Shown one piece after another: positions 6,185 to 51,373 of a stretch of DNA of 64,000 nt. This DNA is from Spirosoma sp. 48-14. GTDB taxonomy: Bacteria; Bacteroidota; Bacteroidia; Cytophagales; Spirosomataceae. Positions within the stretch are counted from its first letter, which is position 1; each line of letters starts with the position of its first letter. Below the pieces are notes generated by a model. That model did no database searches. It saw nothing but the letters and a program-made list of their open reading frames with translations, and had not been told where the DNA came from. Location: the NCBI RefSeq assembly GCF_001898575.1, contig NZ_MKUD01000058.1, positions 186,001 through 250,000 of the forward strand, in the 5' to 3' direction. The translations under genes and the position numbers were made by a program.

Positions 6185-9100
6185 TTATTGTAGGAATTTT
6201 TGACGGCTGTTTTCGATTGACGCCAGTTTTTCCTGATAAGTCCGCAGAAATGCCTGATAATCGGTAGGGTTGGCCGCAGTCCGTAGTTTCTCCAGACCAT
6301 TTCTGGCATAATCGAACAGGCTCATATCCAGGCAAAGCGATACATACGTTTTGAGAAGTTCGGCATTGTCTTCGTTGTAAGGCAACGCCGTCAACACCAG
6401 GCTATAGGCCTGCCTGGTCTGCTTTTGCTGTTGTTCAAACTGAGCAAACGTAGTTGCCATTCGCGCGTTTAGCGGAGCCAGTTGTATCGCCTGTCGATAC
6501 GCTTTGCGGGCCTTGGCAGGCTGTCGCGTACGTTCGTAGGTCTGTCCCAGCCAGTAAAAACGCTCGGCCTGATAATCGGGCAAAATGGGTTGTTTCGCCA
6601 TGATTTCAGCTGCGCCCACGCTCCGTCGGAAAGCCGCCAGCCGAATAGCTGTTACCGTACGCAACGACAAGGCAATCGGACTAACTTTGGATGAATCAGG
6701 TATTCCGGCCAATACCAATTGAGCATTTCGCCATTGCAACTGATCAAGAAAATCGTTCGCAAGGGCAACCCCAGCCACCGATTTTAAACTTGGGTCCTGA
6801 ATGGTTTCCCAATATGCCCCGCGATTGGGATCATCAAGCCGATAGGTAGCATAAAACGCTTTTTCAAGATCGTTTTCGGGTTTGCGTTCCTGATAATATA
6901 CCTGCTTGATTGCCTGCACAGCCGGGTCGCCATGCGCTGCCGTTTCCCAAAGTGACTGCGCCAACACCGGGTCATTCGCTTTAGTCAACGCAATAGCTCG
7001 GTAATAAATAGAAGTCGTATCGGAATTATAACCAAGGATATCAGCCGCCCGGCGATACAGCCCCTGCTCCATCATCCAAAGGCCTGCAATAGCCCGGTAA
7101 GAAGATCCATTTTGCTGATCACCCTCGGCCAATTGAGTCATCAGCCCGAAAGCTGCCGGATGATCATGTCGTTTGTATTCCGCTACAGCAAGCGCCAATA
7201 GAATCTCATCTGTAAAATCCTGATTGGCAGGCTGTGTCGACAGTTGCTGCATGGTTTTGGTCAAGCCAGCATCCGTCTGTCTGGTAGCCAGCGTATAATT
7301 GAACAAGCTGGCAAATCGCCCGATACTCAGACCTTGACCTGCTGGTTTGTCGGCTAACCAGTCAGGTCGTTTCGGTTGAGCTGTGTCGGTCTGAGCCACG
7401 AGCCGGAGGGCCAGCACATTGGCCTGATACGACTCATAAGACGATTCCTTCACCTGTTTGGCCAGCGTAGAATCGGCCCGAAGCACATTAGGATTTCGCG
7501 CATACAAGGCCAGCAGATTCGACTCAGGCACCTCAGTCTGATCGGCATGGTTTGCAGCTGCTGTGAAGTAATAATAGGCTGAATCGGCTACGCTGGTGCG
7601 GGCATAGAGATACCCCAGATTATTCTGCAACTCACCACTTTTCGGAAACGCCCGGATGCCCCGTTGCAGGCTTTTAACGGCTTCGAAGAATAAATTGGTC
7701 TGTAAATACGTCTGACTCAATCCAGCATAAGCCTGCGGGCTGGGCTGTTTGAGTAATGCCTGCTGGAAATAGAAAGCGGCTGCGGTCTGGTTATTCGTTG
7801 CCAGGGCCTGCGTAGCCAGCGAATAATTGGATTTATGGTTTTGGAACTCCTGTTCAAGCGCTAACTGGTAAAAGGCACTGGCCGACGCCGATTCACCACT
7901 AGCCGTATAATAATCCCCCAGGCCATTATAGTAGCCCGCCACTCCCTGCCGAAACGTAATCAGGCCACCCGATGCCAGCAGAACCGCAAAGACGACGACG
8001 CCGACAATCCGAAACAGACTAAGTTCCAGCCGTTTGGGTTTGTATAGAATGCGATATACCGCCAGATTCTGCTGGTAAATGGGCCAGAAATTGATGACAA
8101 CATAGGCCAGAAAAACAAGCCCCATCGCTAAATGGGTATATACAATGACATCCTCAAACAACTCAACAACAGGGTCATTGGCTGTAGCAAACGCATACGC
8201 CATGGTAAGCGTAGTTAGCATGGCCAATCCTACATACAGAAAGGCCCCAGAATCACGAAAGGACACCACATCCTGCTGCTCAATCATCCGGCGAAAGCCC
8301 CAAATGCCAGTGACTAGCGTAATAAGATACAACAGAAAAGGGCTGATTGCCAGCACATCCCAATCAATAGACCGGGTATTCTTAAGCCAGATTAGTGCCA
8401 GATTAATCAGGTACAAAAAGCTGATAACAAGCAGGTTGTTGATACCCAATGCCCGTTTTGAACTTCCGGCGGTGCTCCCTTCTTCAGCCCGTCCAACGGA
8501 GGTTAGCCAAACCAGGCCTGCAATTATTTCGGCCGCCATGAAGAAGATAAAGCCAACACTACACGTAAGCAATACGGGCATCCCGTAGCTTACAATCAAT
8601 AGGCCCGGAAACTTCACCGGCGACACAACTGCCAAACCGGCCGCTACCAAAATCGTCAGCAGGCCAAACGCAGCCATACGTATCAGAATCGGGAAATCGG
8701 AGCGAAAAGCGTGGAAATAATAGCTTACCGATCCAAACAAAAAAGCCAGCAGTAAAAAAATGTAATTACCACCCAGCCCTGGTACTTCGAGCATTTCCCA
8801 GCGAAAAAAGGCCAGGCCCAGAATCAGGATACCCATACTGATCAGATACCGAATCCGGTCGAAATGGGTAACCGCACTCATCACCAGCACAAAAGCGACA
8901 CAGATACCTACCAGAAAAGCAGTAGCCGTCTCGGGTCGTATTTGCATGGCTCCTGCTAAAAATTGCTCCGAAACAGCGTAGGCTTTCCCATTCACGGCAT
9001 AATCGAGCAGGCCATCGGAGAAGTTATAAAAGGTAACAGGTACGTCGGCCAACTCGCTGAGGACATCCCAATGAACAGCATTGCCCAACCCACGTATCCA

Positions 9101-26091: not shown

Positions 26092-26177
26092 AAATTCGGC
26101 TTACGGTGTACTATTTAGTATTCACCAATTATACCGTTTGCTGACAGAATTGCTGCTATGGCTACCCGATTGAACAC

Positions 26178-26714
26178 TCATTCTTGAAACCTTCCTGCCG
26201 CTGACGAAGTCAACAACACGATAAATGCAAGCAGCACCGATGAAATAAGTCCACCAATGATATGCGTTTGGATTAAACCTTTGACGCTGAAAAAGTCACG
26301 AAATTTTTGTAGACTTTCGGTCCCATCATCATCAAAAACTACATTCTGTTCTGTTTCAATCTCCATCATTTTTTGTTGACTTGCCTCCAGATTCTTAACT
26401 GCAATTCTATTTTTGTAATCTGTGTCAATGTAATGATGTAAACCTATATCGAAACCCGTTAACAGAATACCACCCAGAATTACCACGCCAAGTACAGCTA
26501 GGACGGTTTTTTCTACAGAAAGCAGAATAGGTTTGGCAAAACGATGAAAGCCGACGACTACACCTCCCCACGAAAGTAGCACACTTAAAAGATTGAAATT
26601 GGGTAAAGCTGTATGCGTCTGCTCGGCTATATAAGCGACCGTTTCCAAAACAATAAGAATCACCGCATACAGCATGGCCAGAAGTAGCACCATCGAAACA
26701 AAACGAGACGGCAT
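26178..26714 (-). CDS. Four-helix membrane protein (DUF4199-like topology)
   Basis: 178 residues with about four membrane segments (VSMVLLLAMLYAVILIVLET, LLSVLLSWGGVVVGF, TVLAVLGVVILGGILLTGF, HIIGGLISSVLLAFIVLLT) and a charged loop in between (NLEASQQKMMEIETEQ). The arrangement of paired helices and a central soluble loop recalls the Bacteroidota DUF4199 proteins, though I cannot confirm membership. It starts 7 bases after the ABC permease gene and is probably in the same operon, where it could be an accessory or immunity protein (inference). Confidence 0.65.
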   Translation of the reverse strand: MPSRFVSMVLLLAMLYAVILIVLETVAYIAEQTHTALPNFNLLSVLLSWGGVVVGFHRFAKPILLSVEKTVLAVLGVVILGGILLTGFDIGLHHYIDTDYKNRIAVKNLEASQQKMMEIETEQNVVFDDDGTESLQKFRDFFSVKGLIQTHIIGGLISSVLLAFIVLLTSSAAGRFQE

Positions 26715-26721
26715 ACAAGAG

Positions 26722-27495
26722 TTAGTTTAGTAGAAAATTTACCAACTTGTTAGGTCTCCAACGACCATATAGCCAGACAGCCAAAGCTACCAACAACACG
26801 TAAACTCCGGCAGTAACATATTGAGCCTGAAGCTCAGGCTGATAAGAAATTAGCCCATTAGCTGAGGCATAACCGATGGCAAGCCGCAACGCAGCAAATG
26901 GATTTGGAAAATGATGGCTAAACCCAGTTAGAATTTGCAACACTAGCAAGACAAGTACGGCAATGGTGGGTGTTCGGATGAGGGAAGATAGTAGGAAAAA
27001 GGTTAGCCACATTGGAACTGTCAATAACATTAAATGAGCCGAAATAGCCATAAGCTTTCCGAAAAACTGACTCATTGTCAAATTATCAATAACATCTGTC
27101 GCATACCCGTACAAAACAAAACCAGCCACTAACAAACTAATCAATAAGACCAACAGACAAAGTAGCCAGGCAGTCAAAAACTTAGCTACGTACCATCGAT
27201 CTGCTCGAATTGGTAAGCGATACAGCCATGAAACCGTCTGATTTTGCCGTTCGCTATATAGAATTACAAAGAAAACAAGGGAGAAAATAGGGAGTGAAAT
27301 GAGTTGAATAGGTAAGAAAAAGCCCAAAAAGTACCCGTCGAAGCTGACGGAGCGCTTACCAGCCATTGATCCCTGTCCAAGAAGCCATGCCCAACCTACC
27401 AGTGTCCAGCCGCCAATCAGTAGTATCCAAACTACCTGCGGCTGTCGGATTAGCTTCATCCATTCATTTTTGAAATAAACGCGCCAGCTATTCAT
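26722..27495 (-). CDS. ABC-2 type permease, second subunit
   Basis: 257 residues with six predicted membrane segments. The N-terminal SWRVYFKNEWMKLIRQPQVV is the usual amphipathic entry helix of ABC-2 permeases. It overlaps the preceding permease gene by 4 bases, showing tight coupling. Two unlike permeases of about 250 residues plus one ATPase is the arrangement of LanE/LanG/LanF immunity exporters. Substrate unknown. Confidence 0.8.
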   Translation of the reverse strand: MNSWRVYFKNEWMKLIRQPQVVWILLIGGWTLVGWAWLLGQGSMAGKRSVSFDGYFLGFFLPIQLISLPIFSLVFFVILYSERQNQTVSWLYRLPIRADRWYVAKFLTAWLLCLLVLLISLLVAGFVLYGYATDVIDNLTMSQFFGKLMAISAHLMLLTVPMWLTFFLLSSLIRTPTIAVLVLLVLQILTGFSHHFPNPFAALRLAIGYASANGLISYQPELQAQYVTAGVYVLLVALAVWLYGRWRPNKLVNFLLN

Positions 27496-28217
27496 GCGGT
27501 GTATTGTTTATACAATAGCCTACTTAATACCACCGTCCAGCCGATTGACACCAACATATCTATCAAATCGAAAGGAGCCGCGTTGACCGGCGAAAACCAA
27601 AATAGGTGCGAATAAGGTAAGGCAGGTACAGCCATCAGGGCAAGGGTGGCCAACATACTTAGGACCAGTACCGCCAGAGGTTTACCAAAGAAACAGGTTG
27701 TGATAAGCGCAGCCAGTAAGGAAACGGGTAGCATAAGCAAAGCCCTCAGCCCATAATGCCAACCTAATTCAACAATGCCTAATCGTTCCTGTGCATTCAT
27801 GTATGATAAGAATGGTTGTTGCAGTAACACCAATAGCGCAGCCATAAAGCTACTACTCATCAATAAAAAGCTCATGCTGTATAAAAGCTTGGCAACCATA
27901 ACTTTCAAACCCGATACCGGCAACAATCGGGTGAGTTGAATTAAGGATTCAGCCGTTTCTGTGTCAAAGACGGCCACTGTAGCCAGACAAGCCAATAAAA
28001 ATTGTAGGAATGATAAAGTAAGGTTTACTTGGTCATAAAAGAAAAAGGCAAATGTGCGTTCTGGATGAGTTTCCGCCCAAAACGTATATACCCGCAAAGC
28101 TGTCTCACAAAATCGTTGAATCATAAAACCGCTCACTACGAAAGCAAGTGCACCAGCCCAAAGTAGGTGTAAGTGGCGATGAAGTTTCAGCCATTCATTT
28201 TGCAGAACCGGAAGCAT
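27492..28217 (-). CDS. ABC-2 type permease, first subunit
   Basis: 241 residues, about six membrane segments, N-terminus PVLQNEWLKLHRHLHLLWAG. It begins at the last base of the ATPase gene (1-base overlap) and runs into the second permease by 4 bases. The conserved soluble piece FDTETAESLIQLTRLLPVSG after segment two is typical of ABC-2 exporters, where a degenerate EEKxxGT-like loop is found. Confidence 0.8.
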   Translation of the reverse strand: MLPVLQNEWLKLHRHLHLLWAGALAFVVSGFMIQRFCETALRVYTFWAETHPERTFAFFFYDQVNLTLSFLQFLLACLATVAVFDTETAESLIQLTRLLPVSGLKVMVAKLLYSMSFLLMSSSFMAALLVLLQQPFLSYMNAQERLGIVELGWHYGLRALLMLPVSLLAALITTCFFGKPLAVLVLSMLATLALMAVPALPYSHLFWFSPVNAAPFDLIDMLVSIGWTVVLSRLLYKQYTA

Positions 28218-28915
28218 CAGGCATATTCATCATATAGGTTGGTCACTGAACGCCCACTTACTCTAACTTCATCCTTCGTCTGGTCGGCAACCAATCGGCC
28301 TGCTTTTAGAAGAAGAATACGGCTGTAGAACGCTTCCACATCGGGCAATGAGTGGCTCGTTAGTACAACAGTTGTCCCGTATTCGCGCTGTAATTCGGCG
28401 AGTAGTCGTAGAATGAACCGTGTGTTGTCTCGGTCAACGGCAGTAAACGGTTCATCAAGAAGTAATAACATGGGTTTGTTGATAAACGCCAATGCCAGCA
28501 GTAGCCGTTGCTTCATGCCCGCCGAAAGCTGATTAGCCGGTCGTTGCTGAACGTCGTACAAGTCAAATTGATGCAGTATTTCGTTCACCGAAAAACGGGT
28601 TACTCCATAGTAACGTTGTGTAAGACGAAGATTCTCAAAGGCTGATAGATAATTGTAAAACGAATTAGAATAAATCGCAGCCCCTATCTCCGGTAATACC
28701 CGTTGACGTTCGGGCTGATGCATATTACAGCCTTGTATTACCGATTGACCTGTTGCTACAGGTTCAGCACCTAGAACGGCTCGCAATAGGGTCGTTTTAC
28801 CGGCTCCGTTGCGCCCCAATACACAAACGGCTTCGCCGGGTTTGACCTCAAAGCTTACCTCTGATACAATATCGTTCTCCCCTTTACGGACAGTTAGGGT
28901 ATCCACTATTAGCAT
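28217..28915 (-). CDS. ABC transporter ATPase, LanF-like
   Basis: 232 residues. Walker A is GRNGAGKTTLLRA (about 33-45), signature LSAGMKQRLLLALAFIN, Walker B LLLLDEPFTAVD, H-loop LTSHSLPDVEAF. The LSAGMKQRL form and short length resemble ATPases of bacteriocin-immunity exporters. In that group the Q-loop glutamine is commonly Glu; here the matching place reads IGAAIYSNSFYNYLSAFENL, with Tyr or Ser instead, which is unusual. It heads the three-gene exporter. A hairpin and a small secreted-peptide gene lie directly upstream. Confidence 0.85.
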   Translation of the reverse strand: MLIVDTLTVRKGENDIVSEVSFEVKPGEAVCVLGRNGAGKTTLLRAVLGAEPVATGQSVIQGCNMHQPERQRVLPEIGAAIYSNSFYNYLSAFENLRLTQRYYGVTRFSVNEILHQFDLYDVQQRPANQLSAGMKQRLLLALAFINKPMLLLLDEPFTAVDRDNTRFILRLLAELQREYGTTVVLTSHSLPDVEAFYSRILLLKAGRLVADQTKDEVRVSGRSVTNLYDEYA

Positions 28916-28942
28916 ACATAAATTTTCTATAAAAGAACTATT

Positions 28943-28983
28943 CTAGTCTCCAGAAAAGCTGAACATGCTCATCTGGAGACTAG
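28943..28983 (-). terminator. Hairpin between small-peptide gene and ABC exporter
   Basis: Perfect 11-bp arms CTAGTCTCCAG and CTGGAGACTAG with a 19-base loop. On the minus strand it is followed by AATAGTTCTTTT. It lies between the peptide stop and the ATPase start, a good place for partial termination that keeps peptide mRNA above exporter mRNA. Confidence 0.6.
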
Positions 28984-29030
28984 CTATTTTAGTTATAATA
29001 ACGCGGTAAACGACGTGTCGACTATTTTAA

Positions 29031-29210
29031 CTATCCAATACCGAGCCACCAAGTATTGCTTTCAGGATTATTACAAGTAGTCCAATAGATTATGAGACCA
29101 GATGGATACCGTGCACCATGCACCTTACATACTGCCTGAGAGAACCCTAATAGAGGCAAGCTAACCAGCAATCCAGACACCAGCAATCGCTTGAAAAAAG
29201 TTGTTTTCAT
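29031..29210 (-). CDS. Small secreted two-cysteine peptide (59 residues)
   Basis: An ATG at 29210 opens 59 codons ending with TAG at 29033-29031. The first 26 residues form an orthodox Sec signal peptide: basic start MKTTFFKR, hydrophobic core LLVSGLLVSLPLLG, and cleavage likely after FSQA. The mature peptide of about 33 residues has two cysteines (28 and 46) that could form a disulfide, three Trp and a C-terminal WWLGIG. I recognise no family. A weak promoter-like pair (TTG, 20 bp, GATTTTTG) lies about 80 bases upstream. It heads a probable operon with an ABC exporter. That it is translated is inferred from signal peptide quality and placement. Confidence 0.6.
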   Translation of the reverse strand: MKTTFFKRLLVSGLLVSLPLLGFSQAVCKVHGARYPSGLIIYWTTCNNPESNTWWLGIG

Positions 29211-29405
29211 AGATGTAATTTTTCATCGTCTCCCAACCCCCCACTTGCTCATCTGTCCCGGGCCAATGGGCGTGCAACGATTGGTTGAGGCAAAAATCTA
29301 ATAGGCTTAAATTTCTTCCAATTCCATTTTAGAATAATCTTATAACTTTTAGGAATTATTCCTATCTAACAAAAAGTGCATTTGCAAACTTTTAAGCAGA
29401 TTTAG

Positions 29406-29458
29406 GTGACAAGATAGGGCGTAATCCGTCTATGACGGATTACGCCCTATCTTGTCAC
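29406..29458 (+). repeat. Perfect 25-bp hairpin at the start of the XRE gene
   Basis: Arms 29406-29430 and 29434-29458 are exact complements (GTGACAAGATAGGGCGTAAT on, to CGTC) with a 3-base loop. An ATG at 29432 lies in the loop and right arm; the more likely ATG is at 29465, just after the stem. It may be an operator, a translation block, or a small mobile remnant. Confidence 0.8.
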
Positions 29459-29464
29459 TATTTT

Positions 29465-29731
29465 ATGATCGACCTAAAAATTCGCATCCGTAAACTTCGT
29501 GAGTTTGCACAGTATACGCAGGAAGCCATTGCGTATGAACTAGGCATAACCCAGTCGGCCTATCACAAACTCGAAAATGGAAATACCCGATTGGATATAG
29601 ACCGCATTCAGCAATTGGCTACTTTCTATGGAATTACCATTACCGACCTCATGCAGAAAGACCTAACTGAGCTATATGCATACCTATTAACAAACTCAAG
29701 TTTTAAAGATAGATTGGCAAAAAGAGAATAA
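29465..29731 (+). CDS. XRE-family transcriptional regulator
   Basis: 88 residues from ATG 29465; an upstream ATG at 29432 would place ten codons inside a perfect hairpin and is less likely. Residues 8-62 form a Cro/CI-type helix-turn-helix: IRKLREFAQYTQEAIAYELG, then ITQSAYHKLENGNTRLDIDR and IQQLATFYGITITDLM. The rest is a short charged tail. It is divergent from the small-peptide and exporter genes, so it may control them. Confidence 0.88.
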   Translation: MIDLKIRIRKLREFAQYTQEAIAYELGITQSAYHKLENGNTRLDIDRIQQLATFYGITITDLMQKDLTELYAYLLTNSSFKDRLAKRE

Positions 29732-29775
29732 GATATGGCAAATCATAGCTTTCATAGCCTTATATTCGTTGCCAT

Positions 29776-48940: not shown

Positions 48941-51373
48941 CTACCGACGGCCATCGTCATTACTTATTTTTTTGCTCTGCTTACCTCCCGAACTCATCTG
49001 GCCAAACTTATAGCTCAAGGTTAAGCGTACCGAGCGGTTGACAAACAGCGACGTATTTTGTGCCGTGAAAGTAGGTGCAAACTGCTCGCCAGTTTGCCGA
49101 TTACTTCGGTTGAATGGATTATTGAGGTTGAGTGTCAGCGTGATTTTCTTATCCATGAATTCTTTCTTTGCCGACAGGCCGTAATAATACCAGCCCGAAT
49201 TACGGCTTTGTAGCGAAATCCATCCTGAATTAACGTAGCCATTCGCCTGCAAGGTGAAATCTTTGGGTAATTTATACGACGCATTAGGCCCAACGCTCCA
49301 GACCCAACCGCTGGTGCGCTGATTAAGCGCAACGCTTGTTAAATCGACATACGTAAGATCAGCATTCAGGCTGATATTGGTCTGTTTATTAGGCTGAAGG
49401 GTAAAGCTCATATTAGCGCCATAGCTGGCATTTCGCCCAATATTCTGTGGTGCTGATAAGGCTGTACCCTGCGCATCGACCGTTGTCAGCCATTCGATGG
49501 AGTTGTTTGTCTGACGCCAGAATAAAGCCGCATTGAATGAAGAACCTTCTTTCCCAAATGTGCTATACGAGACCTCTGTGGCATGGGTCAATTCGGGATT
49601 TAAAAATGGATTACCCGTCTGTACGTTCTTGGGATCGCTGTAGTTTTTGTATGGATTCAGGTACCAGATCATTGGGCGAGAAATCCGTTGGGTGTAATTA
49701 ACCTTCACAGTATGCTTGTTATAGAAGGTTTTCGCCAGCGTAAAACTCGGAATCAGGTTTTGATACTGGTTGGAGAATCGACTTTGCGTTGTGACAAAAT
49801 CGCCTTGTATAGACGTATTTTCAAGCCGTACCCCTGCTGTTAGATTCCACTTTCGTTTTGAGTCCATTTTCATCGACGCATACCCCGACGTAACCCGTTG
49901 ACTATACGTAAACTCGCTGGATCGATTTGGATCAATCCTGTAATCCTGTTCTAGTCCAGTAGTTGCCTGTTCGATAACATACTCACTTCCGATGTTTCGT
50001 AAGATTGACTTGGCCCCAGCTTCCAGTTTAAAACTAAGCGTATCGTGTTTCGTCCGGGCCGTCAACGGATGGATGTAATCTGTCTGGAACGTGTATTCAT
50101 TGTTACGACTAAGGTTTGTACTTCGTTCCAGATAGGTCGGTATCGTCGATTCAATTCCGGTTTGCTGGATGGTATAGTAATAGTTGTCAGGCATCCGGGC
50201 ATATTGTGTCAAGACCGAAAGCTCCCGCCCTGGCTTCTTAAACGATTTGGTCCAACCAAGATTAAACTCCGTATTACCAAAAGGATTTCGAAACTGAATA
50301 TCACGATGATAAGCCTGCACTACATTTCCCTGTATATCAGTCAGGCGGCTATCTAGTGTGCTATTATTGGGGAAAGTCCCACCCCAAGCGTTGGCCGAAA
50401 AATTGATTCGGTTCGTCGTATCGGGATCGTAATCAAGGCTCAATTCTCCGTAACCGCTCGTTCCTATGTTATCGCGAAAGGTACTTTGCTTTAAAATACT
50501 GGTCGGAATTCCGTTCGTGAGGGCCGTACGCGTGCTGCTGGTTTCGCCAATACCGCGAAACTGATCGCCATTCAATGAAACCGAAACACCTAATTTTTTA
50601 CCTTTTACTGTCAGATTCCCACCAATTGATCGATTTAAATTTCCCCCGGTCAGATTAACAGTACCATTTGTTCCCTGAATAGCCTTCTTGGTAATAATAT
50701 TGATAACCCCTGCCGACCCCTCGGCATCGTATTTGGCACCAGGACTCGTAATGACTTCCACGGATTTAATAATGTTGGCTGGCATCTGTTTAAGTGCATC
50801 GGCCAGATTACGAGCCATAATACTGGACGGCTTTCCATTCACCAGCACTTTAATATTTCCACTGCCCCGCATTTTTAAATTCCCATCCAGATCAACCGTA
50901 AGCATCGGCACTTTACGAAGCACATCAGCGGCCGTACCGCCCGTGTTAGTTGCATCTTTTTCTGCATTATAAACCAGTCGATCGCCTTTATCTTCAACTA
51001 GTGCTTTCTGCCCCACCACGGCTACTTCCTTCAAATTCCGCGTATCGGCGACCAGTTTAATTTGCCCTAAATCGATCCATGGTTTCTCCGTCGTTATTTT
51101 GATAGGCTCCCATGGTTTGGTGCGATACCCTACAAAGGAAATTTCCAGTTTATAGGCACCAACAGCAATTTTTTCAAACAGGAAGTCGCCACTTTCCTTC
51201 GTAGTCACACCCGTAATAAGTTTATTATCTGCGGTTTTAAGCGCTACCGTAGCGAAAGGAATAGGCTTGGTCGTTAGTGAATCAATCAGTACCCCACGAA
51301 TTTGCCCTATACCCGACTGGCTAAAGGAAAGACAAGGCGATAAATAAAAAAGAATCAGGCAAAGGTTTTTCAT
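48941..51373 (-). CDS. TonB-receptor-like outer-membrane protein (OMP_b-brl_3 type)
   Basis: 810 residues. Signal peptide (LCLILFYLSPCLSFSQ), a carboxypeptidase-regulatory-like domain at about 22-105 (GVLIDSLTTKPIPFATVALK), a plug-like domain (GTAADVLRKVPMLTVDLDGN, MRGSGNIKVLVNGKPS), then a large barrel. This layout is the outer-membrane beta-barrel group 3 of Bacteroidota, whose members transport unknown ligands or serve stress roles. A consensus -7 element and a triple 10-bp repeat lie upstream, suggesting activator control. Confidence 0.88.
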   Translation of the reverse strand: MKNLCLILFYLSPCLSFSQSGIGQIRGVLIDSLTTKPIPFATVALKTADNKLITGVTTKESGDFLFEKIAVGAYKLEISFVGYRTKPWEPIKITTEKPWIDLGQIKLVADTRNLKEVAVVGQKALVEDKGDRLVYNAEKDATNTGGTAADVLRKVPMLTVDLDGNLKMRGSGNIKVLVNGKPSSIMARNLADALKQMPANIIKSVEVITSPGAKYDAEGSAGVINIITKKAIQGTNGTVNLTGGNLNRSIGGNLTVKGKKLGVSVSLNGDQFRGIGETSSTRTALTNGIPTSILKQSTFRDNIGTSGYGELSLDYDPDTTNRINFSANAWGGTFPNNSTLDSRLTDIQGNVVQAYHRDIQFRNPFGNTEFNLGWTKSFKKPGRELSVLTQYARMPDNYYYTIQQTGIESTIPTYLERSTNLSRNNEYTFQTDYIHPLTARTKHDTLSFKLEAGAKSILRNIGSEYVIEQATTGLEQDYRIDPNRSSEFTYSQRVTSGYASMKMDSKRKWNLTAGVRLENTSIQGDFVTTQSRFSNQYQNLIPSFTLAKTFYNKHTVKVNYTQRISRPMIWYLNPYKNYSDPKNVQTGNPFLNPELTHATEVSYSTFGKEGSSFNAALFWRQTNNSIEWLTTVDAQGTALSAPQNIGRNASYGANMSFTLQPNKQTNISLNADLTYVDLTSVALNQRTSGWVWSVGPNASYKLPKDFTLQANGYVNSGWISLQSRNSGWYYYGLSAKKEFMDKKITLTLNLNNPFNRSNRQTGEQFAPTFTAQNTSLFVNRSVRLTLSYKFGQMSSGGKQSKKISNDDGRR

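What the first reader, a model, noticed from the sequence alone, without database searches (positions are those of the whole stretch)
26178..29731. Candidate peptide export or immunity locus: secreted peptide, LanFEG-like exporter, membrane protein, XRE regulator
Four tightly packed minus-strand genes (ATPase, two unlike permeases, small membrane protein; overlaps of 1 and 4 bases, gap of 7) follow a 59-residue secreted peptide gene, and an XRE gene diverges. The ATPase plus two permeases of about 250 residues matches LanFEG-type immunity exporters. No lanthipeptide synthetase, radical SAM enzyme or protease is nearby, so this would be a Sec-exported unmodified peptide with a dedicated transporter, a combination I do not know from Cytophagales.
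Basis: partly seen in the sequence, partly recalled or inferred. Interest (0 to 1): 0.7.

Follow-up and report, generated by a model that had tools for sequence, protein, structure and literature searches.

The report
Secreted-peptide and ABC-pump gene cassette
A small five-gene set, found at different chromosomal places in related bacteria, makes a short secreted peptide with a fast-changing middle together with its own membrane pump; it looks like a bacterial weapon (or signal) with built-in self-protection, but no activity has been tested.

Summary
In detail: six genes at the stated places, overlaps 1 and 4, gap 7. Five of them (secreted peptide, ATPase, two ABC-2 permeases, DUF4199-type protein), with a hairpin after the peptide gene, recur as a unit in two congeners and in Lacihabitans, and in diverged form in another family (G555). 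The peptide frame is real: it accompanies the exporter in 4 of 4 close loci, its signal peptide is under strong purifying selection, the stretch between the cysteines changes fast, the tail CxNxxSNTxW is kept. The cassette lies at three unrelated places in three congeners, with short empty sites in relatives. An XRE gene diverges only in the window and, as a dissimilar XRE protein, in G555. LanFEG membership fails: ATPase far below the LanF cut-off, no NCBIfam hit for either permease, Q-loop residue Tyr/Phe/Gly. Best explanation: a Sec-exported, probably disulfide-bonded bacteriocin-like peptide with its own ABC self-protection pump. A peptide signal or an envelope-lipid role is not excluded.

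The parts
29031..29210 (-). 59-aa secreted peptide: signal peptide 1-26 (conserved), mature about 33 aa with Cys28 and Cys46, conserved tail CNNPESNTWW
   Evidence: homologues in G014, G035, G056; dN/dS by segment; AlphaFold model, residues 31-59 with block pLDDT 86-92, strands 28-34, 39-46, 53-58. Cleavage site judged by eye
28943..28983 (-). stable hairpin between peptide gene and ATPase gene (candidate terminator/attenuator or mRNA 3'-end stabiliser)
   Evidence: I3; intergenic z -4.5 in window; a hairpin in the same place in 5 of 5 peptide-bearing loci (z -2.8 to -7.7)
28217..28915 (-). ABC ATPase (Walker A/B, signature and H-loop present by eye; Q-loop position is Tyr)
27492..28217 (-). 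ABC-2 permease 1 (241 aa)
   Evidence: PF12730 34.2 bits, cut-off 27; alignments
26722..27495 (-). ABC-2 permease 2 (257 aa)
   Evidence: PF12730 39.6 bits, cut-off 27; alignments
26178..26714 (-). DUF4199-type membrane protein with (I/V)D(P/T)DYKNR motif
   Evidence: PF13858 31.3 bits, just below cut-off 32.3; homologues
29465..29731 (+).
   Evidence: PF12844/PF01381; homologues
29406..29458 (.). 53-nt perfect palindrome (25-nt arms, 3-nt centre) between peptide and XRE genes; candidate operator or hairpin
   Evidence: a 450-base query holding it matched only its own place in the genome at E 0.001
26103..29774 (.). the whole inserted segment (3672 bp) relative to relatives that have a 61-63 bp spacer here
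   Evidence: blastn against G004, G021, G005; junction sequences

Best explanation
An accessory, relocatable five-gene cassette that makes a Sec-exported, probably disulfide-bonded, bacteriocin-like peptide of about 33 residues and the producer's own self-protection. Proposed steps: (1) the peptide gene is transcribed strongly and many transcripts end at, or are trimmed to, the hairpin after it, while read-through gives less exporter mRNA (inferred from the recurring hairpin). (2) Sec exports the precursor and signal peptidase removes about residues 1-26 (inferred from sequence). (3) In the periplasm Cys28 and Cys46 bond and the mature peptide forms a small beta sheet whose stretch between the cysteines sets target specificity (fold predicted, bond and specificity inferred). 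(4) The ABC-2 pump with the DUF4199 protein clears the peptide from the producer's inner membrane, as LanFEG-, BcrAB- or Pmt-type pumps do (inferred). (5) In the window an XRE regulator, possibly through the palindrome, controls the locus (inferred). Shown here by computation: gene order, conservation, selection pattern, hairpins, insertion sites.
For: Cassette conserved as a unit in the window, G014, G035 and G056, and diverged in G555. Peptide frame under selection: signal peptide omega 0.03-0.09, stretch 27-45 omega 0.5-1.56, other four genes 0.08-0.25; nonsynonymous change in stretch 27-45 versus signal peptide: Fisher p 7e-4, 4e-10, 2e-9 in the three pairs, counts rounded. A leader more conserved than the product is usual for diversifying toxins or pheromones (recalled). 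A distant locus carries an unrelated six-Cys secreted peptide in the same position. Hairpin between peptide and ATPase genes in 5 of 5 loci. Patchy: 3 of the 36 genus genomes (taking those 36 to be among the 119 searched, whose listing is cut), at three different sites with empty sites in relatives. XRE relatives near double-glycine-type peptides in 8 of 29 loci versus 0 of 50 control pieces, with a pattern written after two of the 29 had been read.
Against: No activity, transcript or mass spectrum. The best solved relatives of the ATPase are ABCA-type lipid exporters, so a lipid substrate is possible. A related ABC/DUF4199 set in G592 shows no peptide, so pump and peptide are separable. XRE is not seen at 3 of the 5 peptide-bearing loci, and the G555 XRE is not detectably similar. 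In G014 and G035 no U-run follows the hairpin, so termination is not secure. The omega of 1.56 rests on a low dS in that stretch (synonymous change lower there, p 0.035), and only three related pairs were compared. The cassette is 81% identical in DNA between the window and G014 and the flanking genes of the G014 site 71-77%, so recent transfer is not shown. No outer-membrane exit route is identified. The mature peptide matches no family.
Confidence: 0.5

Rival explanations
1. A secreted peptide signal: the exported peptide is a pheromone and the ABC/DUF4199 complex (with XRE where present) is its sensor, re-uptake or release system.
For: Conserved leader and tail with a variable stretch fit ligand-receptor co-variation; permease 2 evolves faster than permease 1 (omega 0.22-0.25 versus 0.10-0.14); an XRE-type gene diverges in the window and in G555.
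Against: No kinase or receptor gene was recognised inside the inserts; XRE not seen at G014, G035 and G056; the patchy distribution fits an accessory weapon at least as well.
Confidence: 0.22
2. An envelope function: the ABC-2/DUF4199 pump moves a lipid or cell-surface compound and the small secreted protein is its periplasmic partner.
For: Nearest solved ATPase relatives are ABCA phospholipid exporters; a G592 ABC/DUF4199 set without visible peptide exists.
Against: Patchy occurrence at different sites, a fast-changing stretch and an unrelated peptide in the same position in G555 are unlike a housekeeping partner.
Confidence: 0.18
3. The ABC pump is the exporter of the peptide itself (Pmt-like) and the N-terminal segment is a leader read by the pump, not a Sec signal.
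For: The N-terminal 26 residues are the most conserved part in the three congeners; chain 6xjh matched the ATPase profile at 1.2e-36 (that it is the peptide exporter PmtCD is recalled).
Against: The segment has the n/h/c anatomy of a Sec signal (KR, about 15 hydrophobic residues, FSQA; by eye); G056 keeps only part of the letters and G555 only the anatomy.
Confidence: 0.1

Closest known systems
LanFEG lantibiotic immunity transporters (NisFEG type)
   Same: One small ATPase plus two unlike ABC-2 permeases of about 250 residues next to a secreted peptide gene; a works-like candidate
   Different: ATPase 131.8 bits versus cut-off 309.75 for the LanF model and no NCBIfam hit for either permease; Q-loop residue Y/F/G, whereas LanF is recalled to carry Glu there; no LanB/C/M hit nearby; extra DUF4199 gene
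Bacteroidetocins (class IIa-like peptides of Bacteroidetes; PMC6671954, passages read)
   Same: Short cysteine-bearing secreted peptide in Bacteroidota with a transporter and a membrane protein
   Different: Bacteroidetocins have a 15-16 aa double-glycine leader, a peptidase-ABC exporter and mostly a thiol oxidoreductase, and the authors suggest no immunity protein; here a Sec-type signal peptide and an ABC-2 pump without peptidase domain
Sec-exported class II bacteriocins of Gram-positive bacteria (e.g. enterocin P; recalled)
   Same: Unmodified peptide with ordinary signal peptide
   Different: Their immunity is usually one small protein, not an ABC-2 pump plus DUF4199 (recalled); different phylum
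PmtABCD exporter of staphylococcal peptides (recalled; chain 6xjh matched)
   Same: ABC-2 ATPase/permease set that clears membrane-active peptides
   Different: Two ATPases and two permeases there; no linked secreted precursor with Sec signal (recalled)

Membership tests
LanFEG immunity transporter | ATPase passes LanF/gallidermin model cut-off | tested here: not met
   TIGR03740 131.8 bits, cut-off 309.75
LanFEG immunity transporter | permeases match LanE/LanG families | tested here: not met
   no NCBIfam hit up to E 1 for either permease; Pfam gives general ABC-2 families
LanFEG immunity transporter | Glu in the Q-loop position (E-loop; feature recalled, a literature search for it listed nothing on LanF) | tested here: not met
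   Y, Y, Y, F, G in five homologues; position fixed by alignment to the Gln of ABCA3/ABCA7
LanFEG immunity transporter | linked lanthipeptide synthetase | tested here: not met
   none among 20 neighbouring proteins scanned
ABC-2 type exporter | ATPase plus ABC-2 permease domains | tested here: met
   PF00005 98 bits; PF12730 39.6 and 34.2 bits, all above cut-offs
DUF4199 family | passes Pfam gathering score | tested here: inconclusive
   window 31.3 and G555 29.3 versus 32.3; G056 fragment 38.2 passes
Class II bacteriocin | small secreted peptide precursor without linked modifying enzyme | tested here: met
   59 aa, signal-peptide anatomy by eye; no modifying enzyme among 20 neighbours scanned
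Class II bacteriocin | antibacterial activity | not testable with these tools
   -
Bacteroidetocin | double-glycine leader and peptidase-ABC exporter | tested here: not met
   no GG leader in the peptide and none by pattern in 26.0-30.7 kb; ATPase is 232 aa without a peptidase domain among the families shown

The most novel reading that the evidence does not exclude
A new family of relocatable interbacterial weapon in Bacteroidota: a Sec-exported beta-sheet peptide with one disulfide whose hypervariable inter-cysteine stretch sets the target, paired with a DUF4199-containing ABC-2 immunity pump with a non-canonical Q-loop. This would give the DUF4199 family a first role.
Probability: 0.35. Interest if true: 0.75.

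Novelty: new variant of a known kind. Interest (0 to 1): 0.5.

Why it matters
The bacteroidetocins, known small antibacterial peptides of Bacteroidota, use double-glycine leaders and showed no self-immunity gene (PMC6671954, passages read). A Sec-exported, fast-changing peptide with its own dedicated pump would be a different design, easily missed by searches for leader motifs or modifying enzymes. It would also give a testable role to the DUF4199 family, a word that one full-text search found in a single paper, and offers a compact natural experiment: three congeners, three insertion sites, empty sites in sister species.

Tried and rejected
LanFEG membership: rejected on NCBIfam cut-offs and Q-loop residues. 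Defence system: PADLOC gave hits only for the ATPase (25 of 55 shown) and the XRE protein, of the general ATPase and HTH kind. Viral or plasmid carriage: no relative of the peptide or of permease 2 in viral contigs, no peptide match in plasmids, no PHROG for the peptide, permeases or DUF4199 protein (ATPase not scanned). RNA family near the palindrome: only sub-threshold matches. Structure of the DUF4199 protein: model too poor to use (pLDDT 53). Fold search with the peptide model: best E 0.64, not meaningful. Permease 2 profile against solved structures: no match.

Hits read and dropped: G366, an ABC set with one permease; G573, a permease at a contig end with neither a second permease nor DUF4199 after it and the upstream side cut off; G296, a peptide hit antisense to a larger gene. 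The other seven hits (E 7e-4 to 0.007, three with stops inside) were not read. The XRE-HAD pair as an old neighbourhood: rejected, none of the 29 XRE loci L031-L059 shows the HAD gene within its 1.5-kb flanks; 5 further XRE matches had no locus and were not examined. Promoter: an exact TAnnTTTG search (consensus recalled) upstream of the five peptide genes found none.
Full report
What is there. The six frames are at the stated places. Pfam gives an ABC ATPase, two ABC2_membrane_4 permeases, a near-threshold DUF4199 protein and an XRE/Cro helix-turn-helix protein; the 59-aa peptide has no family above cut-off. The XRE start is probably 29465, since 29432 lies inside a 53-nt perfect palindrome, 29406-29458.

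Conservation. The peptide was searched in 119 relatives and found in 4 (the window's genome G000, G014, G035, G056). Permease 1 as a single sequence was found in 3 of 119 (G000, G014, G035); its profile, searched in 390 genomes of the order, gave 4: G000, G056 and two weak hits, G555 and G573. Reading the loci shows the order peptide-ATPase-permease 1-permease 2-DUF4199 in G014, G035 and G056. G555, in another family, has the same order with an unrelated six-Cys secreted peptide of 81 aa and a diverging XRE-type gene; this XRE gives no tblastn match to the window's XRE at E 1e-4. G573 shows a lone permease at a contig end. In the 13 genomes of G555's family its permease was found in 2, G555 and G592; G592 has an ABC/DUF4199 set in another order with a split ATPase frame and no visible peptide, on a short contig. 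A phylum sample of 395 genomes gave for the peptide only the window and one chance hit, and for the permease 1 profile 9 of 395 including the window: the best of the other eight is a different ABC set, the remaining seven were not read. A scan of the 84,980-species collection with the single peptide found nothing; this scan is insensitive, because it missed the Lacihabitans peptide that the collection holds. The scan with the permease 2 alignment found one locus, Lacihabitans. So the cassette looks rare, within these limits.

The peptide. Aligned sequences share MK, FKR, a hydrophobic core, Cys28, Cys46 and S-N-T-x-W. Nei-Gojobori estimates in the three congener pairs: signal peptide omega 0.05, 0.03, 0.09; stretch 27-45 omega 1.56, 0.5, 0.8; tail dN 0.04, 0.21, 0.20 (omega computable in one pair only, 0.02); ATPase, permeases and DUF4199 0.08-0.25. 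Nonsynonymous change is concentrated in stretch 27-45 relative to the signal peptide in all three pairs (Fisher p 7e-4, 4e-10, 2e-9 on rounded counts). Synonymous change does not differ consistently (lower in the stretch in one pair, p 0.035; p 0.48 and 0.09 in the others), and the value 1.56 rests on that low dS. This suggests diversification but does not prove positive selection. AlphaFold on four sequences puts the mature part in three strands (residues 31-59: block pLDDT 86-92; whole mean 73, pTM 0.43). No solved fold matches. The disulfide was not measured on the model.

The hairpin. In 5 of 5 peptide-bearing loci the gap between the peptide and ATPase genes folds into a long hairpin (z -4.5, -7.7, -5.8, -4.8, -2.8). 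In G555 a U-run follows and in G056 the 3' arm itself ends in a U-run, as in an intrinsic terminator; in the window the tail is U-rich but interrupted; in G014 and G035 there is no U-run after it, so it may be an RNA-stability element there.

Insertion sites. Against G004, G021 and G005 the window has 3672 extra bases (26103-29774) where these have 61-63 bases between the SCO1 and HAD genes. Two other genomes compared, G034 and G014, match up to about 24.0-24.1 kb and again from 29775, with 294 and 216 bases between, so they lack the cassette and some neighbouring genes too. In G014 the cassette lies between a pyruvate dehydrogenase beta gene and a PorZ-like gene; these flanks are 13-74 bases apart in 4 of 8 genomes compared; in 3 the second flank did not align, and the window's own genome has another gene there. 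In G035 it lies beside an Fpg gene; its flanks are 35-300 bases apart in 8 of 8 genomes compared. In the window the original spacer is replaced, with no target duplication seen by eye. In Lacihabitans 104-nt direct repeats (87% alike) bracket the cassette, with four partial matches elsewhere in that genome. Homology between the window and G014 inserts runs from 17 bases before the peptide start to 8 bases after the DUF4199 stop, so the shared unit is the five genes. The cassette is 81% identical in DNA between window and G014, the flanking genes of the G014 site 71-77%: relocation is clear, recent transfer is not shown. None of the window insert's six proteins is a transposase.

The regulator. 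The XRE gene is inside the window insert and not seen at the G014, G035 and G056 loci. Of 29 XRE relatives in the genus with loci (5 further matches had none), 8 have a small double-glycine-leader peptide frame within 1.5 kb, against 0 of 29 HAD loci (one place in 29 genomes) and 0 of 50 control pieces of 3.2 kb (Fisher p 1.6e-4). The pattern was written after two of the 29 had been read, several loci come from the same genomes, and the loci are related, so this is indicative only.

The pump. It is an ABC-2 exporter but not a member of LanFEG by the tests available: LanF score 131.8 against 309.75, no NCBIfam hit for either permease. The Q-loop residue, Gln in ABCA3 and ABCA7 in the alignment, is Tyr, Tyr, Tyr, Phe, Gly in the five homologues. 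It may still work like an immunity pump.

Literature. One paper holds the word DUF4199 (listing only). The bacteroidetocin paper (PMC6671954, passages read) describes GG leaders of 15-16 aa, a peptidase-ABC exporter, a membrane protein, mostly a thiol oxidoreductase, and suggests no immunity protein. A nisin immunity review (PMC4828448, passages read) describes LanI and LanFEG. A lantibiotic survey reports LanB/LanC genes in Spirosoma linguale (PMC3091789, passages read); whether the window's species has such genes elsewhere was not searched. Searches for Spirosoma with bacteriocin, Sec-dependent bacteriocins with Bacteroidota, LanFEG/Bacteroidetes terms and small secreted peptides with ABC operons listed nothing whose title or abstract start describes this cassette; only listings were read.

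Verdict. A real, conserved, relocatable peptide-plus-pump cassette, most likely a bacteriocin-like weapon with self-protection; function untested.

Noticed in passing
window 29406-29458: 53-nt perfect palindrome (25-nt arms) six bases before the probable XRE start; a query holding it matched only its own place in the genome.
   Followed up: partly
L032, L033, L039, L042, L044, L055, L056, L059: XRE relatives in the same genus lie within 1.5 kb of small double-glycine-leader peptide frames, some in clusters of similar copies.
   Followed up: partly
L012 5456-6009: In Lacihabitans the DUF4199 frame is split over two overlapping frames near a run of A: frameshift, sequencing error or recoding.
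   Followed up: no
L012 5319-5422 and 8596-8699: 104-nt direct repeats, 87% alike, bracket the cassette; four partial matches elsewhere in that genome.
   Followed up: partly
window 48941-51373: An 810-aa protein that looks like an outer-membrane barrel (by eye; no family scan was run) lies between the PorZ-like and pyruvate dehydrogenase genes, the slot that holds the cassette in G014: possible insertion hot spot.
   Followed up: no
L010 about 6414-6554 and L011 about 8667-8807: G014 and G035 share about 140 bases upstream of the peptide gene that did not align with the window; possible conserved control region.
   Followed up: no
L062 1436-4321: G592: two ABC-2 permeases, a split ATPase frame and DUF4199-like frames without a visible peptide gene, next to a second DUF4199-like frame (the DUF4199 likeness is by eye).
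   Followed up: partly
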